This document shows, one piece after another, positions 14,061-63,044 of a stretch of DNA of 64,000 nt (position 1 is the first letter of the stretch; each line of letters begins with the position of its first letter). The notes under the pieces were generated by a model. That model saw only the letters and a program-made list of their open reading frames with translations. It was not told the DNA's origin and did no database searches. The stretch covers positions 10,663,701-10,727,700 of the forward strand of contig NC_092631.1 of assembly GCF_039555335.1 (NCBI RefSeq), written 5' to 3'. This stretch comes from Amphiura filiformis. Taxonomy: Eukaryota > Echinodermata > Ophiuroidea > Amphilepidida > Amphiuridae. The position numbers were made by a program, and so were the translations under genes.

Positions 14061-14134
14061 GAAACGCCATAAACGCTCATTCTAGATCCCTTAATATTTC
14101 ACTGTAATTATGTGCTTTATTTCCACAGGAAACG

Positions 14135-17885: not shown

Positions 17886-19220
17886 AATATAATTCTCAGG
17901 TGCAATCTGTGTACAAACTCTGCTTTATTTGATGATAAACGGACGGCCCTTTTTTAAGATTTGGGGCCCTGGGTCCCATAATATTTGACTTATGAGGCTC
18001 ATGTACATATGTTGAAGTATAATTCTCAAGTGCTATCAGTAGACTCAAGCTGGGCACTGTAGCTGCTTTATTTACTGAGTAACGGCTGGCCCTATGTTCT
18101 AGCGTTTTGGGCCCTGGGGGCCAATGGTGTGACATATGGGGCTCATATGTACATATAACAATATAATTCTCAGGTGTAATCTGTGTACAAACTCTGAGTT
18201 CTAAAGTTGCTTTATTTGATGAAAAACGGCGGGCCTTTACTTTAACATTTGGGGCCGGGGCCCATAATATTTGACTTATGGGGCTCATGTGCGTATGTTG
18301 AAATATAATTCTCAAGTGCTATCAGCAGACTCAAGATGGACATTGTAGCTGCTTTCTTTATTGAATAACGACCGGCCCTATGTTTTAGCTTTTGGGGCCC
18401 TGGGGCCCATATTATGTGATACATGGGGTCTCATATATACATATAACAATATAATGCTAAAGACCTATTAGTGTACCAAATCTGAACCCTGTAGCTCCTT
18501 TATTTGCTGAGAAACGACCGGCCAAAATGGGCAAAAGGCAATTTTCAACTTAGGGCCCATACATGTGCCACATATGAGCTCTAGTGCCCTTGTAGTTTTA
18601 TAGCTAGCCTTGTCAATCTGTTGCCCCTTATTTTAACATTTGGGGCCCTGGGGCCCATAATATATAACATGTGGGGCTTATGTATAGGCCTACTTGTATA
18701 TATAGAGTACCACTGGATCTATCAGTGAACCAACTCAGGGCCCTGGGGCTGCTTCATTTAATGAGAAACAGCATGCTTTTTATTTTTACATTTGGGCCCC
18801 TGGGGCCCGTGACCTTTGACCTCTGGGGCCAAGATGTGCAAATGATAAATCTACGGGTAGGGCCCATAAGTGTACCACATATGGGCCTTGGTGCCCTTGT
18901 AGTTTTAGCGCTATCCCTGTCAATCTGTTGCCACTTATTTTAACATTTGGGGCCCTGGGGCCCATAATATATGACATGTGGGGCGCATGTATACTTGTAT
19001 AGAGTACCCCTGGGGCTATTATTGTACCAACTCAGGGCCATGAGGCTGCTTCATTTGATGAGAGACGGCATGCTTTGTATTTTTACATTTGGTCCCCTGT
19101 GGCCCGTGACCTTTGACCTCTGGGGCCAAGATGAGCAAAGGATAAATCTACGGGGTAGGGCCCATAAGTGTGCCACATATGGGCCCTGTGGCCCTTGTAG
19201 TTTTAGCGCTAGCCTTGACA
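17886..19220 (+). repeat. Satellite-like array, about 145-150 bp units with GGGGCCCTGGGGCCC core
   Basis: A GC-rich core close to GGGGCCCTGGGGCCCATAAT occurs near 17963, 18110, 18250, 18393, 18640, 18793, 18946 and 19090, mostly 140-153 bases apart. Flanking phrases alternate between two types (for example TATAATTCTCAGGTG and TATAATTCTCAAGTG), giving a roughly 290-bp higher-order dimer in the first part. Open frames crossing it on both strands have repetitive translations and are not genes. Confidence 0.8.
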
Positions 19221-25577: not shown

Positions 25578-25796
25578 TTTATCAAGTTCAGCCTGTATCT
25601 CAGGATTACTGCTGTCTAATGTTCTATAGATTGATCAACAACAAATAGGCAGGAATTATGAGGCTTTTGTTACTATGCTTCAAATATAGACCTTTTTGGT
25701 GCAACAATTGTCCTCTTTGTTTGTGAGTGTAGAATGAAGCAAAAATATGCATGAATCCACAATTGCCTACTTTATAGCTGATATATCACCAAGCAA

Positions 25797-26136
25797 GCCC
25801 ATTCAGTGATCCCAGTGAAATTGTAAAAAAAATAAAATTTTATATAAATTGGAAGTGAAGGATTAGTCATTGTAATTGTCATTAGGTATTTTTGAAATGA
25901 GACATTTATCCAGAAAGAAGAGAAAAACAGCATAAGCCTGTTCAAATACACAAAGCTAATTTATCTGCTTACAGTTTTACAGTTTCATGTCAAATGTCCT
26001 ATGTTGTCTTCAATACACAGCTTTCAGCTTAATAACTAGCAGGCTATGTTAGCACATCTATGGTACTAACAAAGGTGCAACAACCTGAATTTTAATTTTT
26101 ACAATTTTCTGAAGGAGCAAATCACTGAATAGGCCT
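25797..26136. mobile_element. 340-bp MITE related to the ends of the 53-58 kb composite
   Basis: The left end CCCATTCAGTGATCCCAG and right end GCAAATCACTGAATAGGCCT are inverted repeats. The right third (CTAGCAGGCTATGTTAGCAC onward) is clearly homologous to 57685-57790, and weaker homology extends back to about 57630. Confidence 0.7.
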
Positions 26137-41200: not shown

Positions 41201-44200
41201 GTGCAGTTCCCCTTTCTCGAGCTGGTTGCTATGCGAGCGCTTGTGCAAAGGGGACGAAGGGGACAATGTTCCCGGATGACCGACCGAGTGAATACATGAT
41301 AGTATACAAATATTAACTGTCTATGAGTGTGATGGTCGAAATATAATCACAAGGTGAAAGATGGATTGTTCCATTCCACGAGCCGGAACGGCGAGTGGAA
41401 TGGTGGAATTGGTGGTTTGCTCTCATGCAGTGCAGACGTGTCTCTCTTGGAGCTCTGCATTTTCTGTCCATTTTCTTGGCTTTTTACTAAATTGTTGCTC
41501 TCTTTTTATCTGGATCACGCCTTCCTCACTATTGTTACCCTCTATGGAAGCCCGTTTCACCTTTCTGCAAGAATTTCGCTTCATTTTGGGACTTGGTTTC
41601 TACCTCCACATTGGCCATTGCATATCAGCACTGACTGGAGTTGAATTCAGCAGCCTTCATGCACAACAACACTTGGTGAATGGTCGAAATCACGCAAGTA
41701 GTATCAAACTTTCCTGTAGCCATCCATGTTCAATCTCAATCCTGAATTGTTCCTTGTTACATATATTGACTGATTATACATCTTTTTCTGTTATATTGGC
41801 ATTATTATGGGTAATACTCACCTTTGCCATGTATGTGTATTGTAACTATGGAAATTGTTTACTGCGGCGGCCATCTTGTTTTTCCACCAAACATTTTACT
41901 AGCATCCGCCCTTTGTCATTTTATGAGCTTCATCAATAAACAGTCTGATCCAGTATGCCATATAAGCCCAAATATCCATGTGGTATTTGTAATCGCAAGA
42001 GTCAAATGGAAAAACACCTGCTGTGGCATGCGATGACTGTGACGTATGGTTTCATAAAAACTGTGTACACATCACTACTCCTGTATTTAACACCTTGTAC
42101 AACCCAAATGTGTCATGGCATTGTCCTGCCTGTGGTATACCACATTTCACATCAAGCTTCTTTGAATCAACTTACATCGACGCGATTCCTCTTGTAATGA
42201 ATCGAGCAAGCACTCTGACAGTTCTGGCTTAACAAGCCCTATTGGTCAACCCCTAGCTTGCTCTTCACCAAATGAGCCAAACCCCCGGCCCCATGTGCTC
42301 AGAAGTGCACATCCTGTGAACTTGGGAGTTCTTATCATCAATTGCCAAAGTATCAAAGGCAAGGTAGTTGAATTTTGGAACATTTTAGATACTGCCAAAC
42401 CCGGCATTGTCATCCTTACCGAAACATGGTTAAATTCTAATGTATCAAACCATGAGATATTCCCTACTGGCTTGGGTTATGAAGTCTTCCGGAAGGACAG
42501 ACCTGATAGCTGTGGCCGTGGTGGTATCATTATTGCTGTGGCCTCAAGCTTGGACGCAAAACTTCTCCTCTCAGCCACGGATTGTGAGGCCTTGTTTGTC
42601 AAAATCATCTTGAACAACGAACGGCAAAAGACATGTATTGGAGAGTCTCTCATAGTCGGTGCCGCTTATCGCCCGCCAAAGACAAATGACATCCACGAAT
42701 ACATGGACTGCCTATGTAACACCATACGTAACATTGCCAATCAACACAAGAAATCAGTCATGTGGCTGGGTGGTGACTTTAACTTACCAGATATTGATTG
42801 GAACAGCTTCACTGTTGTAGGCCATCAATACCCACAGAGCATCAGCAACAACTTCATCACCACCATGACTGAAACTGGGCTTGATCAAGTTGTCACCTTC
42901 CCTACTAGACTAGACAATACACTTGATTTGTTCCTCACAAACCGTCCATCGTGCGTCAATAAATGCCAACCAATTCCAGGCATAAGCGATCATGAAATTG
43001 TGTTTGTTAATACTGACATCAAACCTAAACTTCGCAAGCTATTGAACCTGAGTATATTTCTCTGTGACAAAGCCGACATGGACGTCATTCACAGTGCAGG
43101 TAACGACATGATGGAAGAATTTGTCGACAAGTATGACTCAACTTCCCCTGTCAGCGAGATGTGGTCTACCATCGAGTCTCGCCTTCTGCAAATACTTGAC
43201 TTAGTTCCATCTAAAATGACTTCCTCCCGCTTCAACCAGCCCTGGGCTAATCGTAAAATCAAGCAACTGAGTAGGCAGAAACAACGAGCCTACAATAAAG
43301 CCCGTTCCTGTCGACGCCAGAAGAAAAAGCGCATGTGGGCCAAGTACAGCAAACTCAAGAAACGCATGCAGAAAGCATGTAAGGAGGCATATGACTCATA
43401 TGTCAATAACATCATATGTCCTGACCTCAAGTCCAACCCTAAGCGGTTCTGGAGTCATATCTCTAGCAAACGCTGTGACACCACCGGCGTTGCTCCTCTT
43501 CGAGGTCCACTAGGTGCCACCTACACTGGTAGCATTGACAAAGCTAATATCCTGAACAACCAGTTCTGCTCAGTGTTCAACAAGGATGAAGATCCCGACA
43601 GCTTACCTGATCTCGGTCCCAGTCCGTTCCCCAAATACCGCACATTCAGGTTTCAGTCAACGGGTGATTAAGCTCCTTAAGAAGCTCAACCCATACAAAG
43701 CTTCTGGGCGGACAACATCCCTGCTCGCCTTCTCAAAGAACTCGCAGACAGTCTTGGACCTATACTCACCATCCTCTACCAAGCCTCTGTTGACTCGGGC
43801 ACCGTACCAGACATTTGGAAGTCAGCCACAGTCGCACCTATCTTTAAGAAGGGGGATAGGAACAAACCTTCAAACTACCGCCCCATATCACTCACTGTCA
43901 TCTGCTGCAAATTACTTGAACACATCATCCACAGCTCAGTGATGCGTCATCTTGAGTCATGTAATATCTTGACTGATTTCCAGCATGGATTTCGCATAAA
44001 AGCACGCTCCTGTGAATCCCAGTTAATCATCACTGTGGGCGACATTGCACACAATTTGGACAGTGGATTGCAAACAGACCTCATACTTCTCGACTTTTCA
44101 AAAGCATTTGACAAAGTTCCTCACCTTAAATCTGCTCCACAAGCTCAAATATTACGGCATTCATGGTAGCCTTCTCACCTGGATCGGAAACTTTCTTCAT

Positions 44201-45799
44201 GGTAGAATTCAGCGTGTAGTCCTGGATGGGGAATCCTCAGATCAAGCTCCTGTATCATCCGGAGTTCCCCAGGGATCAGTGCTTGGGCCATTACTATTCC
44301 TGGCCTACATTAATGACCTGCCGGACTGCATTTCTGAAGACTCCCAGGTCAGATTGTTTGCCGACGACAGTGTAGTATACAGGGTCATCAATAACATCGA
44401 TGATTCCTCCCAACTCCAACGGGACCTGAACGCACTGCAGGACTGGGAACGGAAATGGTTGATGGAATTTCACCCAGGTAAATGCCAGGTACTCCACATC
44501 ACTAAACGCCGCAATCCCATCATCTCAACATACTCCATTCATGGCCATCCACTAGAGGCAGTCCCATCAGCCAAGTATCTAGGTGTCGAGCTCACCAACA
44601 AGTTGTCTTGGAACAAACATGTCGACAACATCACCAAGAAGGAATGAGATCCCTTGGCTTCCTCCGTCGCAACCTGAGCAAGTGCCCTCGAGACATCAAG
44701 ACCACCTGCTACAACACTATTGTTCGTCCCACAGCAGAGTATGCCAGTTGCGTTTGGGACCCCCACACACAGAGGAATTCAGCCAAGGTCGAATCCATCC
44801 AGCGCAGTGCTGCCCGGTATGTCATGGGCGACTACTCCAGAGAAAGTAGTGTCACCACCATGCTTGGGAAGTTAAAGTGGGACTCCCTACAACATCGCAG
44901 AGCCACTGCCAAGGTCACCATGATGTATCGCATCACAAACCAGCTCATTGACATTCCAGACACTCAGCTCATACCTGTCAAAACACCAACCAGAGGGAAC
45001 AACAAGAGATTCACCATACCAAACACTCGTACAACTTTACTGAAGGGGACGTTCTTCCCAGACACCATCCGCCTTTGGAACGCCTTATCTCAACAAGTTG
45101 TTGATTCACCATCTGTCGACGTCTTCAAGACCAGGGTCAAGGACGTCGTCTTCAGCTAAGCCAGTACCTTCCAGCCTGTTTTTTAACCTGTATATAGTAT
45201 CTTTTTATGCCTTTGAGTCTCATGCCTGTTATGTGTGAGAGCGTGCCACCATTTGTGCGAGTATACTCCTAGGAGGTTTATGCACAGTAACGGAAAGAAG
45301 AAGAAGAGGAATGGAACAATACATCTTTCACCGAGTGATTATATTTCGACCATTACACGAATTTAAGACAGTTAATATTTGTTTTATATCACTCATGCAT
45401 AAATTCTATTACTAAAATACTATTTAAGGTAAGAAATACATTTTTTCATCAACATAACACCATGTTTTGCCGTGATATACTTCACATTTTGGGGTCCACC
45501 CCATAACTATAAATCGGCGAGTCAAGAGTCAGCGCATGCGGGCGGCTTGGCGCAGGCGCACTCACGGCAGAGCACATGATGGTAAAGACTATCACACGGA
45601 GAGGGTGATAGTAAAAATGATAAATGGTAATCAACCAATGAACTGTCTAGAATTTATGCATGAGTGATATAAATAATGTATGCTATAATATATATTATCT
45701 TATGCATACAAACAATGTCAATGCACATGATGCATACATGTATGACATGTATGATATCCCCAGAGTTTTACTCACCACTGCGCCTTGAGGATAAGCCAT
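29203..45799 (-). CDS. SRI: Sorcin-like penta-EF-hand calcium-binding protein, eight exons
   Basis: Sorcin is a cytosolic calcium sensor that moves to membranes on binding calcium and modulates ryanodine receptors and other channels (family knowledge). Coding exons on the minus strand are 45799-45776, 39183-39145, 38017-37948, 36379-36336, 35606-35459, 32525-32412, 31573-31515 and 29229-29203. They total 525 nt, and every junction has AG/GT borders with matching phase. The start MAYPQG and the end FIRCVMSI match sorcin better than grancalcin or ALG-2. EF2 ([12 protein letters not shown]) and EF3 ([12 protein letters not shown]) have canonical loops; EF1 is variant, and EF4 and EF5 are degenerate, as usual for the family. 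At 174 residues it is shorter than vertebrate sorcin (about 198) because almost no Gly/Pro-rich N-terminal segment is present; an extra exon may be hidden in intron 1. Introns carry many transposons. Confidence 0.9.
29390..29660 (+). mobile_element. SINE-like element with degenerate B box (sorcin intron 7)
   Basis: GCTCAAATTGCAAGTTTGAGC forms an 8-bp hairpin and includes a B-box-like AGTTTGAGCCCCG. A conserved-looking body and an end AAAGCGCTTTGATACATGTG ... TGTAAATGTCAAC follow, in the style of tRNA-derived SINEs. No A box is left, so the head is truncated. Confidence 0.45.
29661..30343. other. Intron 7 sequence, no feature seen
   Basis: Intronic DNA of the sorcin gene without recognisable genes. 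Confidence 0.4.
30344..31471. mobile_element. 1.1-kb inverted-repeat element carrying a tRNA-like sequence
   Basis: The left end (30344-30382, core GATCCTGACTTTTAGACCAC) and right end (31432-31471, core GTGGTCTAAAAGTCAGGATC) are inverted repeats of about 38 bp. The interior encodes no transposase and includes a tRNA-Arg-like segment. It ends about 40 bp before sorcin exon 7 in genomic order, wholly inside intron 7. Confidence 0.65.
30540..30612 (+). pseudogene. tRNA-Arg-like sequence (SINE head or tRNA pseudogene)
   Basis: GCCTAATGGATAAGGCG is a textbook tRNA-Arg D arm and A box, and GTGGGTTTGATTCCCA is a T arm and B box. The acceptor AGCTGGT pairs 6 of 7 with GCCGGCA. One base is missing between acceptor and D stem, and the anticodon stem (TCCGT against TCAGA) does not pair. 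It is therefore unlikely to be a working tRNA. Confidence 0.6.
31515..31573 (-). CDS. SRI: Sorcin exon 7
   Basis: Acceptor TTTCAG, donor GTAAGTAG. It encodes [19 protein letters not shown], the degenerate fifth EF-hand used for dimerisation in the family (vertebrate form FRRRDTAQQGVVNFPYDD). Confidence 0.85.
31574..32411. other. Intron 6; short GGTAC repeats
   Basis: Non-coding. A small cluster of TGCACTGGTACTACACTGG-type repeats lies at about 32260-32305. A diverged direct repeat (CATGAAGTCACATTGATATG against ATAAGAATTCACACTGATAT) lies near 32098 and 32371. Confidence 0.45.
32412..32525 (-). CDS. SRI: Sorcin exon 6
   Basis: Acceptor TCTGTTTAG, donor GTAAGTT. It encodes [19 protein letters not shown] followed by [18 protein letters not shown]: the EF3 exiting helix, degenerate EF4 and the long helix leading to EF5. 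It matches sorcin strongly (vertebrate RLSPQAV ... FDDYIACCVKLRALT). Confidence 0.92.
33023..33268. mobile_element. 246-bp MITE, TGTGATGCGATC family, copy 2 (intron 5)
   Basis: The 26-bp ends at 33023-33048 and 33243-33268 are inverted and begin TGTGATGCGATCAAGCAAAA, identical over their first 20 bases to the copy at 25106-25322. Complementarity extends further inward (CTCGGAAATATTGA against TCAATATTTCCGAG). Confidence 0.85.
33420..33700 (+). mobile_element. SINE-like segment with B box next to TTAGGG motifs
   Basis: TCTCGGGTTCGAATCCCACC at about 33515-33534 is a strong Pol III B box, followed by a pyrimidine tract. GGTTAGGGTTAGGTT at about 33613-33627 and GGTTAGGGTTAA near 33672 are short telomere-like motifs. 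The acceptor stem of a tRNA cannot be formed. Lies in sorcin intron 5. Confidence 0.5.
33985..34615 (+). repeat. Tandem repeat, unit about 265-280 bp, 2.3 copies
   Basis: GCAAAATGAAGACCTAATT at 34011 recurs at 34276 and, diverged, at 34555. Intervening landmarks (TAGGCCTATAAATTGTGTT, TTGTTTATCCACTAYGCAGG) repeat in the same order. A transposon-end-like CAGTGGCGGATCTAGACC precedes it at about 33919. Lies in intron 5. Confidence 0.8.
34616..35458. other. Rest of intron 5, no gene seen
   Basis: Two GC-rich blocks near 35110-35150 and 35190-35250 (GGGGGCCCATGGAC, GGGGCCCCTGAACC, CTTGCTACGCCCCTC) resemble transposon termini. No exon. Confidence 0.4.
35459..35606 (-). CDS. SRI: Sorcin exon 5
   Basis: Acceptor GCAATAACAG, donor GTAAGTC. 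It encodes [40 protein letters not shown] and [10 protein letters not shown], covering the canonical calcium-binding EF2 and EF3 loops and the linking helix. It is the largest and most conserved exon. Confidence 0.93.
35684..35989 (-). mobile_element. LINE reverse-transcriptase fragment in intron 4
   Basis: The minus-strand frame reads [20 protein letters not shown] and [20 protein letters not shown], the RT block with PQGT and the catalytic YVDD of a non-LTR element. Only about 100 codons remain, about 80 bp from sorcin exon 5 and in the same orientation as the gene. Confidence 0.8.
36336..36379 (-). CDS. SRI: Sorcin exon 4
   Basis: A small 44-nt exon with acceptor ATGATTTCAG and donor GTATCC. 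It encodes [14 protein letters not shown], matching the conserved FNLETCRLMVSMLD of vertebrate sorcin. Phase fits both neighbours, which supports it despite the weak donor. Confidence 0.9.
36446..36709. mobile_element. Possible MITE in intron 3
   Basis: AATTAAAATTAGAAGAATTT near 36446 is mirrored by AATTCTTCTAATTTAATTTA near 36690. The interior contains two TGACGTCA-like motifs but no coding domain. Confidence 0.5.
37031..37410. mobile_element. 380-bp inverted-repeat element in intron 3
   Basis: AAGGCCAAG plus an A run and GGTTTGTTTGCCCTTTC (37031-37078) pair with 37370-37408 (GAAAGGGCAAACAAACAA ... GGCCTA). The interior is T-rich and non-coding. Confidence 0.6.
37948..38017 (-). CDS. SRI: Sorcin exon 3
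   Basis: Acceptor CTTTTACAG, donor GTGAGTAAC. It encodes [20 protein letters not shown] and NYQ plus one base: the EF1 loop and exiting helix (vertebrate DGQIDADELQRCLTQSGI). Confidence 0.92.
38018..39144. other. Intron 2, no feature seen
   Basis: AT-rich intronic DNA. The phrase GGTTGCTTACAAAGAC is directly repeated near 38163 and 38197. No transposon recognised. Confidence 0.5.
39145..39183 (-). CDS. SRI: Sorcin exon 2
   Basis: 39 nt with acceptor CACGTACAG and donor GTAAGTG. It encodes [13 protein letters not shown], matching vertebrate sorcin DPLYGYFAAVAGQ at the entry helix of EF1. Confidence 0.92.
39656..40337 (+). mobile_element. Penelope-like fragment with GIY-YIG domain between inverted arms
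   Basis: A GIY-YIG endonuclease domain is visible from about 39920: [20 protein letters not shown], then after one frameshift [20 protein letters not shown] and [10 protein letters not shown] ending in a stop at about 40178. This arrangement (YIG ... ILD.. WFKRGVKEA) is typical of the C-terminal GIY-YIG of Penelope-like retroelements. The domain is flanked by inverted arms of about 130 bp (39656-39785 and 40211-40337; landmark CCAAAACCTTTGGCCTTCAG). Inverted pseudo-LTR-like arms are known in Penelope elements. No reverse transcriptase remains. Lies in sorcin intron 1 and is inactive through deletion and frameshift. Confidence 0.65.
40338..40670 (+). mobile_element. CR1-type LINE fragment in intron 1
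   Basis: Starting exactly at the Penelope arm border, the frame reads [40 protein letters not shown] and [17 protein letters not shown]: a piece of CR1 ORF2 C-terminus, truncated at both ends. Confidence 0.8.
41307..45381. mobile_element. Hairpin element split at its apex by a CR1 insertion
   Basis: Bases 41307-41377 and 45308-45381 are inverted repeats with few differences (ends CAAATATTAACTGTC; inner ends GGATTGTTCCATTCC and GGAATGGAACAAT). Without the CR1 they would form a compact hairpin of about 150 bp. A relative of the same hairpin type is at 60834-60996. Confidence 0.75.
41378..45307 (+). mobile_element. Nearly complete CR1-type LINE, antisense in sorcin intron 1
   Basis: A 3.9-kb element. 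A PHD-type zinc finger is at 41960-42180: YPCGICNR, then after a one-base slip [13 protein letters not shown] and [11 protein letters not shown]. The APE endonuclease (42295-43660) shows [33 protein letters not shown] and ISDHEIVFV. The reverse transcriptase (43661-45159) shows [55 protein letters not shown] and [10 protein letters not shown], then the CR1 tail EYASCVWDP ... [13 protein letters not shown]. Only about five single-base frameshifts interrupt it (near 42012, 43655, 43715, 44125 and 44645), so it is young but not intact. The 3' end is a short GAAGAAGAAGAAG tract at 45295-45307. Confidence 0.9.
45383..45673. mobile_element. 291-bp MITE just downstream of sorcin exon 1
   Basis: TTTATATCACTCATGCATAA at 45383 is mirrored by TTATGCATGAGTGATATAAA at 45654-45673, with 26 bp of near-perfect inverted repeat. 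The interior holds GC-rich GCGCATGCGGGCGG. It ends about 100 bp from the exon 1 splice donor. Confidence 0.75.
45776..45799 (-). CDS. SRI: Sorcin exon 1 (initiator)
   Basis: ATG at 45799 begins MAYPQGAV and ends at donor GTGAGTAA. Vertebrate sorcin also starts MAYP, and the phase fits exon 2 directly. The 6.6-kb intron that follows makes this the least certain exon; an intervening Gly/Pro-rich exon could exist. Confidence 0.65.
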
Positions 45800-48868: not shown

Positions 48869-48968
48869 CGTTGTGCAAGAAAGGTGTTTGTTTATGATAC
48901 TTATTGATTACGGAATAAACTGCATACACACAATATACTATTACTAGTATAATAAATACGAATATAAT

Positions 48969-49141
48969 CCTAACCCTAACCCCTAACCCTAACCCTTACC
49001 CTAACCCTAACCCTAACCACTAACCCTAACCCAACCCTAACCCTAACCCTAACCCTAACCCTAACCCTATAACCCTAACCCTAACCCTAACCCCTAACCC
49101 CTAACCCTAACCATAAGACCCTAACCCTAAGACCCTAACCC
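48969..49141. repeat. Interstitial telomeric repeat, CCCTAA array
   Basis: About two dozen CCCTAA (TTAGGG on the minus strand) units with occasional single-base slips run over roughly 170 bp. TTAGGG is the usual deuterostome telomere repeat. The block is internal and bounded by transposon-like ends, so this is not a chromosome end. Confidence 0.95.
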
Positions 49142-49218
49142 TGACAATAATGAACCTTGCCTCGGACTATGCGGTTAGTGATATATTGCGGCCCATTATG
49201 GTTGCAGAAAGAAATTAT

Positions 49219-50304
49219 TTATGTCCTCTTTTGCACAATTACTGTATTTTTGTGGGACCTGAATTTTAAATTTTTATGATGATGACCAGAGAGTTGATAT
49301 TCTTGAGAGGGCACTCTATTCACGTGGTTTCTTTTCCAACGCTAAAAGATCACGAATTTTGGTGGTTTGCAAATGAAAAGTGTCCGCACTATCGATTGAT
49401 TACGTAACTGTTATGAATAATGTATTAGGTTTTCAATGCAATCGCCTCGACCCATCAATACATATTATCTGTATTTATCAAAGTACTTGGAATAGCAATC
49501 TGGTGAGTTCACTGAACTACGCCCTAATACTGATGGAGTTTTAATGGCGTTTAATGGCGCTAATCCTCTCCATACACAGATGAACAAATACAATAGGAGA
49601 AGGTCAACACATAATGACCTCCTATATGACATGTTATATGAGATGTACAACAACCTGAATATCATAAAGATCAGTGTTCGTTTGTGCATATGAACTGCAT
49701 ATTTACAATACTAAATATTAGTCGTTATATATTATGCCAAATATTGGTATTATGACAACACGGTATATGCATTGTATATAAAACAACTAATAGATCCTGC
49801 TATCATGGCGTCAGGTCATTGGTTCATCATATCCCGTATGTTTCTTAAAATTCATTCATATTTGAGACAAATTTCTGTGCCCATTTTATAGGCGTACAGG
49901 TGGATCCGGTTTTTTTGTTTTTTTCATTTCTTTTTGATGAAAGAATTAAGGTTTTCCACTGCACGGAGGCCACTATGTGATACTAATTTAATGCTATATT
50001 TATAAATTGAATACGTGTTCCTGATTGGCTCTATAGCGATTTCACAGAAAAGGTATTTCTAGTACAATGCAGCGTCGGACTCTAGCTGAGAGCGTAGTAG
50101 CCTAAGTCATGGACTCCAAGAAAGGCTCTCCATACACAAATGAACAAACACAAAGGAAGGTAGTCTCCTCCGTGACCAGCTTGATTTCGATGGAGCGAAA
50201 ACAAATTGGCTGCAGAGGAGACGGGTAATTTTGCCATGCAAATGAGGTGAGTGTCATCCCCCTGATGATGACATAGACTCGCTTGCCATACGCCGTACCT
50301 ATGT
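49219..50304. other. Non-coding stretch with one short dispersed repeat
   Basis: CTCTCCATACACAGATGAAC at about 49566 recurs with one change near 50127 (CTCTCCATACACAAATGAAC). No exon or RNA gene. Confidence 0.45.
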
Positions 50305-50810
50305 ACACCAGGCACAAAAAGAAACTCGTCAGTTATATTCATCCTTGCGGTTCAATAACTTGATAATTTTTATTATTCTGAAATATACATTTTGTTAATT
50401 GGACTTTTTTTTCTCATTTGACACCCTGTTCGTGAACATTGAGCAAGAATTGACCAAGATATGCGCCTCCAAACTCTCAAACCCCAAAATGGAAAGTTGC
50501 AATTTTAACGATTCAATTGTGCATGTTACACTGTGTGCTTTATTGATTGGCCCGTGGTGCTTGTGTGCAATACAACGATTACGATGCGTTCCCATTGAAA
50601 ATCGTTGAAAATGCAACTTTTGATTTTGGGGTTTGAGGCATTGGAGGCGCATATCTTGGTCAATTCTTGTTCGTTTTTCACGAACTGGGTGTCAAATGAG
50701 AAAGCAAAGTCCAATTAACAAAATGTATATTTCAGAATAATCCAAAATTATCAAGTTATTGAACAGTAAGGATGAATATAACTGACGAGTTTCTTTTTGT
50801 GCCTGGTGTA
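50305..50810. mobile_element. 506-bp foldback element with about 205-bp arms
   Basis: ACACCAGGCACAAAAAGAAA at 50305 begins an arm that is the reverse complement of the right arm ending at 50810. Inner landmarks AATTGACCAAGATATGCGCC and its complement near 50645-50670 also match. The loop is about 60 bp. Confidence 0.85.
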
Positions 50811-51385
50811 TATTGAGGACTGGCTTACGCCATTTTGGATGTCAATGGGAAATACACACTTAACGATTTGCGCCGGTTAGAAACTTGAAAAAAAATCTTT
50901 TAAATTTCATCAATGTATATAAATGTGGTACCAACTGTATTGTGCTTGATAATTTAAGACTCGGTTGAAACAAAATTAAGGATCGAAAGCATTTAAGTGT
51001 CCAAAAGGCAAAATTATCGTCAAAGTTCTGTTGAAATCGGCACCCTTGCGAAGGGTTCAGAATTCGAATCGGGAACGAAAATATCCGATCTTTGCGATCA
51101 AAAACACAAAATTACAACTTTAAGCATACTATTGGCAAAAGACATTATTACCAAACAATATAGAATAGAAAATTTGACATCATTTTCTCAAAATAATGAA
51201 AAAATTTGCTCACTAGACATCGAAAAAGTACGCAATCCAATTCCCGTTCAAACGCGTGGGAAACTGAAAGTGCATAATCGTGACTAATGTGTTGTGCGTT
51301 TGGCAAGTTGGGAGGGGTGGGGGTTCAAAATGACCCCATAGGATTATAAAATTGCTCAAATACCTCTTTCAAATATATCAAATTA
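50811..51385. other. Non-coding stretch, no gene seen
   Basis: The open plus frame at 50997-51287 has no recognisable domain or start context, so no gene is called. Confidence 0.4.
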
Positions 51386-51405
51386 TTTACATAAATAAAC
51401 AAAAA

Positions 51406-51436
<31 letters not shown>

Positions 51437-51473
51437 ATGAATGAATGAATGAATGAATGAATGAATGAATGAA

Positions 51474-51532
<59 letters not shown>

Positions 51533-51682
51533 AAAAAAATAAATAAATAAACGAAAAAAATTGAACACATTTTAGCGTAGCATTAAAATCATAAATATAA
51601 CCATTGCTGGCAGGAGGACTCGAACCAACGATATTGATATCAGCAGTCTGATGCTCTACCATTGAGCTAAATGACAGCATCT
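51386..51682 (-). mobile_element. SINE-like unit: tRNA-like head with long TTTA tail
   Basis: Read on the minus strand, a tRNA-like head (51682-51605: TTTAGCTCAATGGTAGAGCA as D arm/A box, GTTGGTTCGAGTCCTCC as B box) is followed by a short AT-rich body and then a 150-bp TTTA/TTCA tetranucleotide array (51556-51395). Head-body-tail order is that of a short SINE. The acceptor pairs only partly (TGCTG with CAGCA), so it is not a functional tRNA. Confidence 0.6.
51395..51556. repeat. Compound AAAT/GAAT tetranucleotide microsatellite
   Basis: AAAT units switch to GAAT for about ten units and back to AAAT. Minus-strand frames reading FIYLFIYLF are artefacts of this array. Confidence 0.95.
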
Positions 51683-51911
51683 AGTGATGAGAGTCGAGTT
51701 TTTAGCTTATACAGTGTTTGTCTGTGATAATGTCGCCTCGTGAAAGAAAAAAATATAAAATCTCAATTTGTAATTTAAATTTATTTGATAATTTTCTAAC
51801 CTATATTTTCTTTCGAGCAGGGACAAATATTTCCCCTTTTATCTAATTTGACCGCTATATAAGAATCTATTTCTTTTATTACTGATTTAATTCCGCGATT
51901 TGTTCCATTAA

Positions 51912-52247
51912 AGGAGTATTTCGTGATCCTAGCATCCTCTTTTTATGGCATTTTTCAGTACATATCCACGAAAAAATCCTATTCCCAAAATTTCAGTTGA
52001 TTCCGATTTTGCGTTTGCGAGTTATGCATGATTATGTGTATTACACTGCTCCATAGACAATGTGTTGTAATTTCGTTCTGGTGCACCAGAACGAAATTCA
52101 AATTTCACGATATCTTTGCAAAACGAATTAATCTGCAAGAAATATTTTGTACATAAACATTATGTAGCCAGAGGTTTCCAGTGATATAAAAATCTCAACT
52201 TTTTTTGAGAAAAGTGGGGGATGAGGCTGTGGATCACGAAATGCCCT
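51912..52247. mobile_element. 336-bp TTAA-flanked MITE with central perfect palindrome
   Basis: TTAA at 51908-51911 and 52248-52251 flank inverted ends AGGAGTATTTCGTGATCC and AGGGCATTTCGTGATCC (right end read inwards). TTAA duplication is typical of piggyBac-type insertion. Bases 52068-52097 form a perfect 30-bp palindrome centred on TGGTGCACCA. Confidence 0.8.
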
Positions 52248-52290
52248 TTAAGCAATATCAAAGATTAATGTCACACATCTCACAACAGAT

Positions 52291-52368
52291 ATTTAGTTGG
52301 TCTAGTGGTCTTGCACAGTGCTGTTTAACCGGGAGGTACCGAGATCGATTCCCACCTCTGCCTGCAAT
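52291..52368 (+). pseudogene. tRNA-like sequence with T-run
   Basis: TTGGTCTAGTGGTCTTGCAC is an A-box/D-arm-like stretch (as in tRNA-Glu/Asp), and GAGATCGATTCCC is B-box-like. A T run follows within about 8 bases, as in Pol III terminators. The acceptor stem is not formed, so a SINE head or tRNA relic is more likely than a tRNA gene. Confidence 0.45.
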
Positions 52369-53228
52369 TTTTTTAAAGACTGGGAAATAATAACCTGACA
52401 TTCGCCGCTGACATTCGTACTTCAGAAGCGGAGTTATAACTTGTTAAACTTTGCTCCTTCCGTAAAAGGGTACATTATTTTGGCACTACATTATTTATTT
52501 TTTATTTTTCACATTGCTGGTATTAAATATCAAATGGTCATAATTGGCGGTCACTTCAAATCATCCCCAACTGAACTAGGTTCAGGAATTTCCTCTCATT
52601 GTTAACTGTTGGTTAACCCACCACTTGAGAATAAAGGACTATGATAGGTGCAACAGGATTACCTACGGGATTATCTCAAGGATATAATTCTGTTCTCCAT
52701 CCTTTTCTTACATCTTCTCTGATATGTGCTAGTGTCAATGGTTATTGTTAAAAGGCAATAAGGTGTGTAATTGCAATATTTCCTCTGAATAGGAAAGACT
52801 CTCTACATCGAGTTATGTATGCTGGTGGTTCGCAATACTGTTATTTAAGAGAAGGTATCTTCCAAATCCAAATTCAAATGGGCCCTGTTTAACTTTCAAC
52901 CTTGGAAATCCTGAATTTCCCAGGCGGTGATAGAGCCGACAACTTGTGAAACCGCCCGGCCGTATGGCATTTTCCATACACTCAGTTAGTTTTGTGGGGT
53001 TCGTTATCGTTTTAGCTTGTATTTATATTATTTATCATAGCCCGGTAACATAGGCCTATTTGTTTGTGATATTTGTTTGTGCCTTATGTTGGGAACCTCA
53101 TGGGACCCCGGGCATGGGACCGTTAGAATGTACAAGTCAACAAATTATTGTGTTGATATGTTTTGTAAAAGTTACTTAAAACGTGCATGGTCCTTGAGAT
53201 CCTCTGTCTTGAAAGATATTTAATGTCC
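52369..53228. other. Non-coding stretch, no gene seen
   Basis: Includes a GC-rich patch near 52935-52970 and TAGGCCTAT at about 53050. No feature supported. Confidence 0.4.
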
Positions 53229-53529
53229 ATTAAAGGCCCTTTCAGTGATTTCACAGGAACATTAAAAAAATGGAAATTTGTCAGAGTTGCTTAGAAATAA
53301 AGAATAAGTCTACAGAATTTCATTAAACCACTTTTCCCTGAATACATCGACAAATTAGTCAAAAACAGAAGTTTTAGAAAGGTTTTCTACTTCAACTCAG
53401 ATCGACTCGAGAAAATCGAGATTTTCGTACAGTGCGCCACCAATCGACTGGAAAACTTCCTAGTCCAGTGTTTCTAACACGGGGAAGTGAGTTATGTACG
53501 TCATCCACCAGTGGAGCTCCTGCGCCCCT

Positions 53530-55140
53530 CCGCAGAACTTCCGGTAGTGGATGTTCTGCGCTCGGGGCGCAGAGAATCCACTGTCGGAGTTGCTGCGCTC
53601 GGAAGCAAAATAATAGATTTTCGTATTATAATAACGGTGGATCATTTCTGCGCTCGGGCGCAGAACATCCACTATCGGAGTTCATGCGCTCGGAAGTAAA
53701 ATAATAGATTTTCGTATTATAATAACGGTGGATCATTTCTGCGCTCGGGCGCAGAACATCCACTGTCGGAGTTTGTGCGCTCGGAAGCAAAATAATAGAT
53801 TTTCGTATTATAATAACGGTGGATCATTTCTGCGCTCGGGCGCAGAACATCCACTATCGGAGTATGATGCGCCCGGGCGCAGTCCCTTATATGTAACGGT
53901 GGATCATTGCTGCGCTCGGGCGCAGAACATCCACTGTCGGAGTTGATGCGCTCGGTATCGGAAGTAAAATAATAGATTTTCGTATTATAATAACGGTGGA
54001 TCATTTCTGCGCTCGGGCGCAGAACATCCACTGTCGGAGTTCGTGCGCCCGGGCGCAGTCCCTTATATGTAACGGTGGATCATTGCTGCGCTCGGGCGCA
54101 GAATATCCACTGTTGGAGTTGCTGCGCTCGGAAATAAAATAATAGATTTTCGTATTATAATAACGGTGGATCATTTCTGCGCTCGGGCGCAGAACATCCA
54201 CTGTTGGAGTTGCTGCGCCCGGGCGCAGTCCCTTATATGTAACGCGGGTGGATCATTGCTGCGCTCGGGCGCAGAACATCCACTGTTGGAGTAACTGCGC
54301 TCGGAAGCAATATAATACATTTTCTTATTATAATACTGGTGGATCATTTCTGCGCTCAGGGGGCGCAGAACATCCACTGTCGGAGTTGATGCGCTCGGAA
54401 GCAAAATAATACATTTTCTTATTAGGCCTATATTAATAAATATACATGCGTATAATAACTAGTATTAGGCCTATTATAACTCCAAATTGAAAGCAAAATA
54501 ATACATTTTCTTATTGAAATTACGGCGGATCATTGCTGCGCTCGGGCGCAGAAAATCCACTGTCGGAGCTTCTACGCTCGGAAGTCAAATAAATTATTTT
54601 CTTATTTTATTAATAAAATATAATTATGCATGCGTATAATAACTAAACTCCGAGAAGTTTATTGCTATTAGTATAACCGAATTGACAGCAAAATAATAGA
54701 TTTTCTTATTATAATAACGGTGGGTCATTGCTGCGCTCGGGGCGCAGAGAATCCACTGTCGGAGTTGATGCGCTCGGAAGCAAAATAATACATTTTCTTA
54801 TCAGGCCTATATTAATAAATATGCATGCGTATTTTTCATTGCTGCGCTCGGGCGCAGAAAATCCACTGTCGGAGCTTCTGCGCTCGGAAGTCAAATAAAT
54901 TATTTTCTTATTTTATTAATAAAATACAACATGCATGCGTATAATAACTAATATTTTCTTATTATATTAATAAAAAATAATATGCATGCGTATAATAACT
55001 AAACTCCGAGAAGTTTATTGCTATTAGTATAACCGAATTGACAGCAAAATAATAGATTTTCTTATTATAATAACGGTGGATCATTGCTGCGCTCGGGCGC
55101 AGAACATCCACTGTCGGAGTTGATGCGCTCGGATTATAAT
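53530..55140 (+). repeat. Left-arm module array, 91-bp and 80-bp units
   Basis: GGATCATT followed by CTGCGCTCGGGCGCAGAACA recurs with starts near 53639, 53730, 53821, 53901, 53999, 54077, 54168, 54250 and 54341, so spacing alternates around 91 and 80 bp. Type A units carry AATAATAGATTTTCGTATTA; type B units carry GGGCGCAGTCCCTTATATGT. Each unit contains the hairpin CTGCGC-TCGG-GCGCAG. Towards the centre units become longer, with added TATGCATGCGTATAATAACT. The open frames giving repeated MDVLRPSAEMIHRYYN peptides are by-products. Confidence 0.9.
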
Positions 55141-55228
55141 AAAACTTATTATATTAGCGCTACGGAGAAGTTTATTACAAGTTTCATTTCTTTACTGTTT
55201 TCTTTCTTCTTCATTCTTTTTTCTTCAT

Positions 55229-56000
55229 CTTTTTTTTTCGTTCACGTTTCCTTGTCGGTACTTCTCATGTAACCGCAAATAATTCCTATTCAAATATAAT
55301 TCTGATTGACACATGACCACTTGCAATTCGGCCTTTGTTAGTCACCAGATAAGTAGGTGTCATTTTGTGGTTAATAGATAAAAGGAACCGATAAGGCCGC
55401 GACGAAAAAAGAAACCCTGTTCTACGGGCGGACGTACCTTTCAAGTAGGGTCACCCATTTAAAAAAAAATTTTTTTTTGGAAATAACCAAAATAACTGCG
55501 CTCGGAAACAAAATTACATATTTTCTTAATATTATAATATCAGTGGATCATTTTTGCGCTCGAGCGCAGAGAATCAACTGCCGGAGTTGCTGCGCCTAGT
55601 TATTATACGCATGCATATTATATTTTATTAACATAATAAGAAAATAGCGTTTATGATTTCCTTATTCGTCTATATATCGTAGGCCTTGGTGTAGCCTAGA
55701 TGCCGGCGACATGAAACCACGTTTATCGGTTCCTTTAATCTCTAACCACAAAAGGACGGCGCATAATTATCCTCTGCCGTGGATTTAAAATTGACATTGA
55801 TCTTCGCTTATGCTAATTTTTGGACCCCCTCCGCTTGTTTGGGAATCCAATGGATTACACCTACTTATCTGTTGACTAACAAAGGCCGAATTGCAAGTGG
55901 TCATGTGTCAATCAGAATTATATCTGAATAGGAATTATCTGAGAGAGCAATTGCGGTTACATGAAAAGTACCGACAAGGAAACGTGAACGGGAAAAAAAA
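55229..56000. repeat. Central unique stem and loop of the palindrome
   Basis: GTTCACGTTTCCTTGTCGGT (55242) and the run TAATTCTGATTGACACATGA to CTAACAAAGGCCGAA reappear inverted at about 55860-55990. A partial module (GCGCTCGAGCGCAGAG) lies in the loop near 55556. The right copy has about 100 extra bases near 55740-55850 not seen on the left. Confidence 0.8.
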
Positions 56001-56094
56001 GGAAAGAAAAAAAAGACAAAAGAAGAAAAGAAGGTGAGGAGATAAGTTTAAGTGACCGCTTATGGGTTCGAATTTCAACCGGCCTAATCATGAA

Positions 56095-56168
56095 GCTCCC
56101 GTGGCCAAGTGGTTAAGGCATAGGTCTCGTAAACCTGAGGTCCTGGGTTCGATTCCCAGGCGGGATCA
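56095..56168 (+). tRNA. tRNA-Thr(CGT)-like gene in the right arm of the palindrome
   Basis: The sequence has a D arm GCC-AAGTGGTTAA-GGC, an anticodon arm TAGGT-CTCGTAA-ACCTG with anticodon CGT at 56128-56130, and a T arm CTGGG-TTCGATT-CCCAG. The acceptor GCTCCCG pairs with CGGGATC at six of seven positions if one base is allowed to bulge after the T stem. TTTTT at 56170-56174 would stop Pol III. The left arm has no counterpart, so it came in, or was lost, on one side only. It could be a real tRNA gene, a pseudogene or a SINE head. Confidence 0.55.
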
Positions 56169-56374
56169 CTTTTTCTCCTTGTCTCCTTTATTATTTGCGA
56201 CGGCGAACCTGATGAAAATTAATGTTTATTTATATAATTCCCGTCGATCATGCCACTGTTTTTCCGAGAAGAAAAGAATGTAGATGAAAGAAAACAGAAA
56301 ATAAATGTAAAATGAGAAAAAACATATTATATTATATTAGACTCTAGACTCTTTTTTTTTTACTTCTGAGCGCA

Positions 56375-57340
56375 ATTACTCCAACAGTGGATGTTCTGCG
56401 CCCGAGCGCAGCAATGATCCACCGTTATTATAATAAGAAAATCTATTATTTTGATTATTTTTTATTAATAATATAATAAGAAAATATTAGTTATTATACG
56501 CATGCATATTGTATTTTATTAATAAAATAAGAAAATAATTTATTTGACTTCCGAGCGCAGAAGCTCCGACAGTGGATTTTCTGCGCCCGACCGCAGCAAT
56601 GATCCGCCGTAATTTCAATAAGAAAATGCATTATTTTGCTGTCAATTTGGAGTTATAGTTATTATAATAGGCCTAATACTAGGCCTAGTTATTATACGCA
56701 TGTTTATTTATTAATATAGGCCTAATAAGAAAATGTATTATATTGCTTCCGAGCGGAATTACTCCAACAGTGGATTCTCTGCGCCCGAGCGCAGCAATGA
56801 TCCACCGTTACATAGGCCCTATAAGGGACTGCGCCCGGGCGCATGAACTCCGACAGTGGATGTTCTGCGCCCGAGCGCAGCAATGATCCACCGTTATTAT
56901 AATACGAAAATCTATTATTTTACTTCCTAGCGCAGCAACTCCCACAGTGGATTCTCTGCGCCCGAGCGCACCAATGATCCACCGTTACATATAAGGGACT
57001 GCGCCCGGGCGCATGAACTCCGACAGTGGATGTTCTGCGCCCGAGCGCAGCAATGATCCACCGTTATTATAATACGAAAATCTATTATTTTACTTCCTAG
57101 CGCAGCAACTCCGACAGTGGATTCCTGCGCCCGAGCGCAGCAATGATCCACCGTTACATATAAGGGACTGCGCCCGGGCGCATGAACTCCGACAGTGCAT
57201 GTTCTGCGCCCGAGCGCAGCAATGATCCACCGTTATTATAATACGAAAATCTATTATTTTACTTCTGAGCGCAGTTACTCCAACAGTGGATTCTCTGCGC
57301 TCCCGAGCGCAGAACATCCACTACCGGAAGTTCTGCGGAG
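56375..57340 (-). repeat. Right-arm module array (inverted copies)
   Basis: The same two module types as the left arm appear in reverse complement: GCAATGATCCACCGTTATTA with AATACGAAAATCTATTATTT (type A), and CCGTTACATATAAGGGACTG with GCGCCCGGGCGCATGAACTC (type B). Three consecutive A-B pairs near 56830-57230 are almost identical to each other, suggesting recent unequal exchange or conversion. Confidence 0.9.
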
Positions 57341-57799
57341 GGGCGCAGGAGCTCCACTGGTGGATGACGTACATACATGCTAAATTGATTTAAAACAGAC
57401 GCTTAATTTTTGTAGTAGAAAACAAAATAAGCAATTAAAGGTCACCGAGGCAAACTAACGGTCAATTCAAATATGAAAAACAGTTAAAATTGTGTATTTT
57501 GTTTAAAATAGTAGCTACTGGTAATAGGCCTAAGTAGTAGAAACAATACGCAACGCGTGTTGGTACGTGGAGAGTGAGCTTCTTTCGATCTCGAGTCGGA
57601 CTTTTGTACTGTCAGTATCAAAAGTCCAGAATCATGCAAATGCTTTATTTTGTCTAAAATACACGGCTTTCGACCGAACCACTAGCAGGCTATGTTAGCA
57701 CATCTATGCCAATTACAAAGGTACCAAAATCTGAATTTTGATGATTTTTACGATCGTCCGGATGAGCAAATCACTGAATGGGCCTTTAATTGTCATGTC

Positions 57800-61279: not shown

Positions 61280-61855
61280 AATGACATCTATGGACCTGAA
61301 GTCATGCAGCGGTACATAGGGATGCACTGTACATTTAAGAAATCCAAACTTCAAGCATCAAGAAATATACCTTGTATTTGTCAGTTTTACCTCAGAGATG
61401 CTGTAGACCCTCTCTACACAGTGTAGAAACATCACAAGTAGAATGCTGCTCAATATGATAAATCCTAATCATGAAAATTAAGACAATTTGCAGAGCAATA
61501 TATATTTTGACCACTTTTGCACTAAGTAAATTACTCCCATGCAGATTGCAGGTTTTGCCAACTCAGGGAATTTTGAACCCACCCAAAAGATGAGATCAAT
61601 GTAGATCAATTACCTCAACTTTGTGAGTATAGACTAGTACAGTGAGATTAAAATCATCAGTGCACGCCCAAACCCTGGTACAATGGGATTAAAATCATCA
61701 GTGCATGCCCAAAATGTCCTTGAGCAGTACGGGCGCATCACAGAGTTTTTACGAGACATACTTACTTGTCCCGCAATAACGGGAATTCCTTTACCAACCG
61801 GACTTTGCTGTCCTGCAATATCGGGTAATCCTGTCATAATGAGACATTATGTTTT
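61280..61855. other. Non-coding; short direct duplication
   Basis: ATTAAAATCATCAGTGCACG near 61648 is repeated 41 bp later with one change (ATTAAAATCATCAGTGCATG near 61689). No gene. Confidence 0.5.
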
Positions 61856-62325
61856 TAACATGCTCTTCGGGCTAAACGATTGAGTATCGCATGTCGTGAA
61901 TAGCGCCATCGTGTTCAGCGTGAAAAGAACCCCTAAGTCAACCATGGCGGGGGTTACGGCAAAATGGGATGTTACTGATATCTTGCTATTTCTTGTTTTC
62001 CATTGAAATATCTATAGACAATTCGAACAATGCAATACGTATAGCAACGTAATATAAACAATTTTTTCAGGGCTGTCAACTCTCACGCATTAACATGCTC
62101 TTCGGGCTAAACGATTGAGTATCGCATGTCGTGAATAGCGCCATCGTGTTCAGCGTGAAAAGAACCCCTAAGTCAACCATGGCGGGGGTTGCGGCAAAAT
62201 GGGATGTTACTGATATCTTGCTATTTCTTGTTTTCCATTGAAATATCTATAGACAATTCGAACAATGCAATACGTATAGCAACGTAATATAAACAATTTT
62301 TTCAGGGCTGTCAACTCTCACGCAT
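61856..62325 (+). repeat. Tandem duplication, two 235-bp copies
   Basis: TAACATGCTCTTCGGGCTAA at 61856 recurs at 62091, exactly 235 bp later, and the copies agree to the end with one substitution noticed (GTTACGG near 61954 against GTTGCGG). The near-identity indicates a recent event or an assembly duplication. Each copy ends in TTTTTTCAGGGCTGTCAACT, an acceptor-like sequence, but no exon family is recognised. Confidence 0.9.
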
Positions 62326-63044
62326 TGGCCGTGAGTCTCACGCATTGGGTCACTTTCTCACGCCAAGTTACTGAAATTTGAGTTACTGAAATTTCAGTGT
62401 AGTAATTGGATCCCTTGCCCCAATAATATACATAAATTTTGTTACCAGTGTGTTATTATTTTTTGAGAAAAATGCAAAAATAGTCACAAATTTACCACAG
62501 GGGTGTAGTACCCCCTTAATGAGTTTGTGTTTGCTTCAAGAGCGCCAAACTACGCCGACCAACGTTTTGACTCGTAATCGGCCAATCAAATTATCGGTCT
62601 GTTGTTATGATTGTCAGACCATGGCATTGAATCTGCCAATCAGAACCCCACTTCCGGGTTGCCGTTCTTCTCTGAGAAAAACAATAATTCACAAGATGCA
62701 TGGACTAAACATAGTTGTAGTAACTACAAATTTCGAACATTTGAGGACTTGTTTTCAGGTTGTAGGTACTCACATAGTCATAGGGTGCCTCCAGGGTTTT
62801 ATTTTGGAAAGTTTGCATTAGTATATCTAGTAAAATACTCACTTTAGAAACTGTGTCACTGATGTATGTCATCTGTGATTGCTCAACTTATTCTACGCAT
62901 CAGCTTTTGTCCAAAGAAATATTTAAAAAGATGATTTTTGAGTGATTTTTATGAGCAGCGAAAAGTCCACTCCACGATGTACATGTGAATATGGTGATGG
63001 TGATGAATGCATGCTAAATCGAGGCGACACATACACATAGCTCC
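62326..63044. other. Non-coding stretch, no gene seen
   Basis: A short CTCACGCATTGG repeat lies at 62318-62350. No exon supported. Confidence 0.4.

What the first reader, a model, noticed from the sequence alone, without database searches (positions are those of the whole stretch)
53496..57372. Giant 3.9-kb palindrome with arms built from two alternating hairpin minisatellite modules
The outer tips are perfect complements and both arms carry the same two module types (about 91 bp and 80 bp), each containing CTGCGC-TCGG-GCGCAG. No protein is encoded. Such modular foldbacks are rare; sea urchin TU and Drosophila FB elements are the known analogues. The alternation A-B-A-B, the different copy number in the arms and the added CATGCATGCG spacers near the centre suggest stepwise growth by unequal exchange. 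It may be an undescribed foldback family.
Basis: partly seen in the sequence, partly recalled or inferred. Interest (0 to 1): 0.82.

Follow-up and report, generated by a model that had tools for sequence, protein, structure and literature searches.

The report
Foldback element inside a Kolobok-like transposon
This is a real 3.9-kb mirror-image DNA element, most likely a transposon without its own genes whose two arms are stacks of small hairpin units, and it sits inside a second, TTAA-flanked transposon; it looks like a new example of a known but uncommon kind.

Summary
The palindrome is real: 53493-57375, with 74-bp perfectly complementary tips and arms of 1902 and 1653 bp around a 328-bp loop. 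I delimit 14 and 9 dyad-bearing modules in the arms plus one in the loop. Two outer types (A ~91 bp, B ~80 bp) give way inward to longer C modules, in largely the same order in both arms. Non-modular arm sequence differs by 7-9%, so one arm is not an assembly copy of the other. Nine of 27 reading frames were tested; none reached a Pfam cut-off.

The palindrome lies within 53234-57785, bounded by TTAA and by AGGCCC[T/A]TTCAGTGATTT inverted ends, which match published Kolobok marks. A shorter relative near 25795-26136 has both ends but neither palindrome, CpG nor flanking TTAA.

Best reading: a nonautonomous foldback transposon of the Tetris plan, nested in (less likely, integral to) a Kolobok-like element, its modules amplified from a dyad shared with the tip, probably transposase-binding sites. 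Its own target duplication is ambiguous. The host genome is not held, so family status and transposase class stay open. New member of a known kind; moderate interest.

The parts
53230..53233 (.). TTAA, left target duplication of the outer Kolobok-like element
53234..53251 (+). left terminal inverted repeat of the outer element, AGGCCCTTTCAGTGATTT
53252..53492 (+). left body of the outer element; matches the short relative weakly and only over its first ~28 bp
53493..53566 (+). left tip of the palindrome, 74 bp identical to the right tip; contains a 52-bp near-palindrome (53502-53553) alignable with the modules
53552..54339 (+). left outer domain: modules A0 A1 A2 B1 A3 B2 A4 B3 A5 (A0 overlaps the tip)
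54340..55142 (+). left inner domain: long modules C1 C2 C3 C4 and truncated A6
55143..55394 (+). left arm, non-modular pyrimidine-rich and unique part, pairs with the right arm's 56354-55723
55395..55722 (.). central loop with one lone module (~55496-55596) facing an inverted C-type tail (~55597-55661)
55723..56354 (-). right arm, non-modular part, with two stretches absent from the left arm (55758-55853 and about 56029-56271)
56095..56169 (+). tRNA-Thr(CGT)-like sequence inside the right-arm extra stretch
56355..56804 (-). right inner domain: modules C1 C2 and truncated A3
56805..57316 (-). right outer domain: modules A0 B1 A1 B2 A2 B3 (A0 overlaps the tip)
57302..57375 (-). right tip of the palindrome
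57376..57767 (+). right body of the outer element; 57627-57785 is 78% identical to 25980-26136
57768..57785 (-). right terminal inverted repeat of the outer element, AGGCCCATTCAGTGATTT
57786..57789 (.). TTAA, right target duplication of the outer element
25795..26136 (+). short relative of the outer element: both ends present, no palindrome, no CpG, not flanked by TTAA

Best explanation
53493-57375 is a nonautonomous foldback DNA transposon with the plan described for Tetris: flanking tip, outer tandem-repeat domain, inner domain, middle. A transposase made elsewhere in the genome would act on the shared tips (inferred). The arm modules carry a dyad, GTGGAT-n5-CTGCGC-TCGG-GCGCAG-n3-ATCCAC, that aligns with a near-palindrome in the tip. 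They are best explained as secondary transposase-binding units that share an origin with the tip unit and were amplified in each arm by slippage or unequal exchange. The amplification is supported by module order and identities; the binding role, and the direction tip to module, are inferred. This foldback element lies inside a 4552-bp TTAA-bounded element with Kolobok-type ends, which I read as a nonautonomous Kolobok-like element that received the foldback insertion (inferred).
For: Perfect 74-bp tips. Arms colinear in module order: 18 of 5000 within-type shuffles as good, 0 of 5000 full shuffles. Same-type neighbours often closest. Tip 53502-53553 aligns with the left modules in both orientations, scores 20 and 18; 0 of 1000 mononucleotide shuffles reach either, maximum 16. 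Stem columns vary in 3 of 288 cells against 95 of 1029 elsewhere in the module core. None of the 9 reading frames scanned (of 27 listed) reaches a Pfam cut-off. Outer boundaries TTAA + AG...CT with a 21 of 22 inverted match; the best of 60 random placements in the window is 18. The outer parts show no clear similarity to the palindrome (best E 0.037), as expected if the two have separate origins.
Against: No second copy of the palindrome was found in the window, so mobility is not shown directly. No unambiguous target duplication: candidates at the edges are GTAC, ACGT, TA, AT, CG, or 8 bp with 6 of 8 matching. The perfect tips are only mildly surprising: at 94.7-96.8% arm identity, 74 matches have a chance of about 0.02-0.09 (my arithmetic). 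No compensatory changes in the stems (0 of 12 pairs; 21 of the 24 modules aligned, 15 distinct), so selection on the fold is not shown, and stem constancy could partly reflect homogenisation. By columns the stem/other contrast is borderline (2 of 12 against 22 of 44, p 0.051). The lone loop module does not fold better than its shuffles (64 of 200 as good), and the B module tested folds by pairing its two GC palindromes with each other. B modules do not match by position across arms (L_B3/R_B3 83%, less than L_B3/L_B2 93%). The short Kolobok-like relative does not cover the insertion point, so the nested state is not proven, and it is not flanked by TTAA.
Confidence: 0.68

Rival explanations
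1. The palindrome is the native interior of one large nonautonomous Kolobok-like element (53234-57785). It has no ends or target duplication of its own and moves only by the outer TTAA ends.
For: TTAA on both sides and Kolobok-type ends. No unambiguous target duplication at the palindrome's own edges. Outer parts are CpG-richer than the window average (o/e 0.91 and 1.16 against a mean of 0.58), though not clearly so (17% and 5% of same-sized windows as high). Xenopus Xmix, a T2-MITE presumed to belong to Kolobok, has an amplified internal repeat (PMC6004289, passages).
Against: The outer parts share no clear sequence with the modules. The palindrome edges are sharp, with perfect tips. The only relative of the outer element found in the window has no palindrome.
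Confidence: 0.22
2. A locally grown inverted repeat: a minisatellite that was duplicated head-to-head at this locus (for example by template switching at a fork) and then diverged; never mobile.
For: Only one copy in 64 kb. Hairpin-forming repeats are known substrates for slippage (general knowledge).
Against: A tip with its own distinct unit, sharp ends lying inside another transposon and a lone module in the loop are not expected from a single local duplication. CpG o/e of 1.2-1.7 in arm domains and centre (tips 0.8) against 0.59 in the rest of the window suggests a different history from the host sequence, but weakly.
Confidence: 0.08
3. Assembly-made inverted duplication.
Against: Arms differ by substitutions (3-9% by segment outside the tips), module number (14 against 9) and two right-arm-only stretches.
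Confidence: 0.02

Closest known systems
Tetris (Drosophila virilis foldback transposon; PMC4079207: abstract, introduction, results section 10 and part 1 of the discussion read)
   Same: Long inverted arms (up to 1,735 bp) with flanking, tandem-repeat outer and inner domains; middle without apparent coding capacity; repeat number varies between alleles; repeats share a 37-bp stretch (~80%) with the flanking domain.
   Different: Tetris has one ~220-bp repeat type and 8-10 bp target duplications; here two short outer module types (91/80 bp) with GC dyads, a tip unit alignable with the modules in both orientations, and no clear target duplication.
Sea urchin TU elements (named as foldbacks in PMC4079207; details recalled, not read)
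   Same: Foldback plan with an outer tandem-repeat domain and an inner domain (recalled).
   Different: Recalled outer-domain repeats are about 15 bp; no TU sequence was available to compare.
Galileo (P superfamily foldback-like element; as described in the discussion of PMC4079207)
   Same: Internal tandem repeats in the arms with additional transposase-binding sites: the mechanism I propose here.
   Different: No transposase or Galileo sequence was compared; target duplication not resolved here.
Kolobok superfamily and Xenopus T2-MITEs (PMC9587614 abstract and passages; PMC6004289 passages)
   Same: The outer element has TTAA on both sides and 5'-AG...CT-3' ends, as reported for these; the T2-MITE Xmix has an amplified internal repeat.
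   Different: T2 motif is AGGRR, here AGGCC; no transposase; the interior holds a giant palindrome.

Membership tests
Foldback (FB/TU/Tetris-like) elements | Long terminal inverted repeats making up most of the element | tested here: met
   Arms 1902 and 1653 bp of 3883 bp
Foldback (FB/TU/Tetris-like) elements | Arms built of internal tandem repeats in variable number | tested here: met
   14 against 9 modules; TRF arrays
Foldback (FB/TU/Tetris-like) elements | Nonautonomous copy without transposase | tested here: met
   No Pfam match above cut-off in the 9 reading frames scanned, of 27 listed
Foldback (FB/TU/Tetris-like) elements | Target duplication of fixed length | tested here: inconclusive
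   Only self-complementary 2-4 bp candidates or 6 of 8 bp
Foldback (FB/TU/Tetris-like) elements | Dispersed copies in the genome | not testable with these tools
   Genome not held; one copy in 64 kb
Mutator or P superfamily (homes of foldbacks named in PMC4079207) | 8-10 bp target duplication and superfamily transposase | tested here: inconclusive
   No perfect 8-10 bp duplication; best 6 of 8 at the tip edge; no transposase to test
Kolobok (outer element) | TTAA target duplication | tested here: met
   53230-53233 and 57786-57789; the short relative at 25795-26136 lacks it
Kolobok (outer element) | Termini 5'-RR ... YY-3' | tested here: met
   AG...CT; criterion from PMC9587614
Kolobok (outer element) | Kolobok DDD/E transposase or a known autonomous partner | not testable with these tools
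   Genome not held; no Kolobok transposase was searched for in the window beyond the Pfam scans
Sea urchin TU elements | Sequence identity to TU arms | not testable with these tools
   No TU sequence in the collections; paper searches found only a citing paper

The most novel reading that the evidence does not exclude
An undescribed animal foldback family whose arms are arrays of two hairpin modules that share a dyad unit with the tip, carried inside Kolobok-like elements and spread by the TTAA ends as well as its own: a two-layer element in which a hairpin-minisatellite foldback travels inside a Kolobok-like shell.
Probability: 0.15. Interest if true: 0.6.

Novelty: new member of a known kind. 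Interest (0 to 1): 0.38.

Why it matters
Well-described foldback elements come from rather few species, and the transposase that moves them is often not found, as for Tetris (PMC4079207). A copy with countable, largely colinear modules and a tip unit alignable with them gives a concrete series for testing whether arms grow by duplicating transposase-binding dyads. The Kolobok-like shell raises a testable question: are such palindromes passengers or native interiors of TTAA elements?

Tried and rejected
Assembly artefact was rejected because the arms differ in substitutions, module number and unshared stretches. A protein-coding reading was not supported: 9 of the 27 reading frames of 60 aa or more were scanned and none reached a Pfam cut-off; the lowest E-value was 0.00071 for DUF5776 at 20.1 bits against a cut-off of 27. 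Covariation support for the hairpin was sought and not found (21 of the 24 modules were aligned, L_A0, R_A0 and L_C4 left out). CpG content was tried as a contrast between palindrome and outer element and does not decide nesting. Sub-threshold Rfam matches in the arms, such as Scr6925 at 25 bits against a gathering score of 50, were dismissed as chance.

Searches for copies elsewhere found nothing: viral contigs with a module pattern, an outer-element pattern and a tip pattern and prokaryote genomes with a module pattern. These collections are not meant to hold animal genomes, so the misses say little. Paper searches by sequence string, on TU and foldback elements and on Kolobok showed me no description of this element; only listings were seen, except for PMC4079207, PMC9587614 and PMC6004289. 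Transposon libraries were not available.
Full report
What was checked. The segment is a true giant palindrome at 53493-57375, three bases longer at each end than reported. The two tips are identical over 74 bp. The best self alignment on the opposite strand scores 750 bits, while 100 mononucleotide shuffles of the same sequence reach at most 53.6.

Anatomy of the arms. I cut both arms at the repeated TGGATCATT and named 24 modules: 14 left, 9 right, 1 in the loop. Left, from the tip inwards: A0 A1 A2 B1 A3 B2 A4 B3 A5, then long C1 C2 C3 C4, then a truncated A6. Right: A0 B1 A1 B2 A2 B3, C1 C2, truncated A3. A and B share the first half, TGGATCATT-n-CTGCGC-TCGG-GCGCAG-AACATCCACTGTCGGAGTT. They differ in the second: A ends in an AT-rich stretch, B in a second palindrome TGCGCCCGGGCGCA (6 occurrences, equal to the number of B modules). 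Past the modules the arms go on pairing through a pyrimidine-rich and unique stretch down to 55394 and 55723. Outside the tips the arms are 94.7% (outer domain), 96.6-96.8% (inner domain) and 91.4-92.5% (non-modular part) identical at aligned bases, gaps apart. The loop holds one lone module, about 55496-55596, next to an inverted C-type tail.

How the arms grew. Order-preserving comparison of the module strings scores better than all but 18 of 5000 shuffles within module type, and better than all of 5000 full shuffles. The arms therefore most likely descend from one ordered array. The tip-most A0 modules match each other best (93%), L_C1 matches R_C1 best (85%) and L_C2 matches R_C2 best (84%). 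Same-type neighbours inside an arm are also very close: L_A1/L_A2 96%, R_A1/R_A2 97%, R_B1/R_B2 99%. Not every pair fits position: L_A4 is nearer R_A1 (95%) than R_A2 (93%), and L_B3/R_B3 are only 83% identical while L_B3/L_B2 are 93%. The left arm has five more modules than the right: by the alignment, two A modules near the tip, one A before the C block and one pair of C modules.

The tip and the dyad. The 52 bp at 53502-53553 fold into a hairpin as single-stranded DNA (z -3.1, 1 of 200 shuffles as good) and align with the left-arm modules in both orientations, with scores 20 and 18; none of 1000 mononucleotide shuffles reaches either, their maximum being 16. So the tip and the modules share a dyad unit; which came first is not shown. 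Of four other stretches folded, an A, a B and a C module fold better than nearly all shuffles, but the B module does so by pairing its two GC palindromes with each other, and the lone loop module does not stand out (64 of 200 shuffles as good). In the module core the stem positions vary in 3 of 288 cells against 95 of 1029 elsewhere (Fisher p 8e-8), but by columns the contrast is only 2 of 12 against 22 of 44 (p 0.051). Modules are related by duplication, so the cell count overstates significance. There are no compensatory changes in the 21 modules aligned. The three CpG of the stem-loop are kept in 24 of 24 modules each, while the CpG of GTCGGAG is lost in 7 of 24; several losses sit in neighbouring modules and may be few events.

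Outside the palindrome, 53230-53251 and 57768-57789 form TTAAAGGCCC[T/A]TTCAGTGATTT inverted ends, 21 of 22 identical; 60 random placements in the window give at most 18 of 22. This makes an element 53234-57785 of 4552 bp with TTAA on both sides. TTAA duplications with 5'-RR and YY-3' ends are the published marks of Kolobok (PMC9587614, passages); T2-MITEs of Xenopus are presumed Kolobok members with TTAA and AGGRR (PMC6004289, passages). A shorter relative at about 25795-26136 has both ends. Its right part is 78% identical to 57627-57785 over 160 columns, its left part 73% to 53236-53279 over 44. It has no palindrome, no CpG and, against the Kolobok reading, no TTAA at its edges, which may be decay. 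It lacks the parts next to the palindrome, so it does not show the empty site.

Nested or integral. The outer parts share no clear sequence with the palindrome (best E 0.037), and the palindrome's edges are sharp. I favour a foldback element inserted into a Kolobok-like element. Against this, the palindrome's own target duplication is unresolved. At a junction where the symmetry runs on, a duplication must itself be self-complementary, and the candidates are GTAC, ACGT and dinucleotides such as TA or AT; an 8-bp pair ATGTACGT/ACGTACAT matches at 6 of 8. CpG content does not decide: o/e is 1.25-1.67 in arm domains and centre, about 0.8 in the tips and 0.59 in the rest of the window (0.90 in 50000-53229), and 0.91 and 1.16 in the outer parts, values met by 17% and 5% of same-sized windows elsewhere.

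The right arm's extra stretches. About 243 bp at 56029-56271 and 96 bp at 55758-55853 are present only in the right arm. The first holds a tRNA-Thr(CGT)-like sequence, 55.4 bits against a gathering score of 29. A second tRNA-like sequence at 30539-30612 (38.1 bits) looks like a SINE head (recalled pattern). Whether the right-arm copy is a SINE insertion, a captured tRNA gene or a left-arm deletion is open.

Mechanism. Shown: the palindrome, the shared tip-module dyad, largely colinear arms, close neighbouring modules, and the TTAA shell. Inferred: that a transposase made elsewhere moves it by the tips, and that the modules are secondary binding sites. For Galileo and Tetris the same idea is discussed in PMC4079207 (discussion part 1). 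The alternatives are an integral Kolobok interior (0.22), a local, never mobile inverted minisatellite (0.08) and an assembly artefact (0.02).

Known or new. By plan it is a foldback element as described for Tetris (PMC4079207, results section 10), a paper that also names fly, sea urchin and other examples. The sequence-string paper searches showed no description of this element, but transposon libraries were not available. I file it as a new member of a known kind. The host is a eukaryote by inference: non-LTR endonuclease and reverse transcriptase frames and a TAACCC array. TAGGCCTA is 24 against 0.8 expected, a flavour I recall from echinoderm and related genomes; the species was not identified.

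Noticed in passing
window 25795-26136: Short CpG-free relative of the outer Kolobok-like element; a 28-bp block, ACTAGCAGGCTATGTTAGCACATCTATG, is identical in both copies although overall identity of the shared right part is 78%.
   Followed up: partly
window 30539-30612: tRNA-like sequence (Rfam 38.1 bits), perhaps the head of a tRNA-derived SINE.
   Followed up: no
window 48965-49142: Interstitial telomere-type array of TAACCC, about 28 copies, 86% matches.
   Followed up: no
window 61855-62326: Two tandem copies of a 235-bp unit at 99% matches, apparently a recent duplication.
   Followed up: no
window 17920-19214: Two nearby tandem arrays with ~286-bp and ~297-bp units that both contain GGGGCCCTGGGGCCC.
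   Followed up: no
window 42166-45159: Non-LTR retrotransposon in several overlapping frames: endonuclease and reverse transcriptase domains.
   Followed up: partly
window 14108-14923: Open frame with a Sulfotransfer_5 match (45.8 bits, cut-off 23.2).
   Followed up: partly
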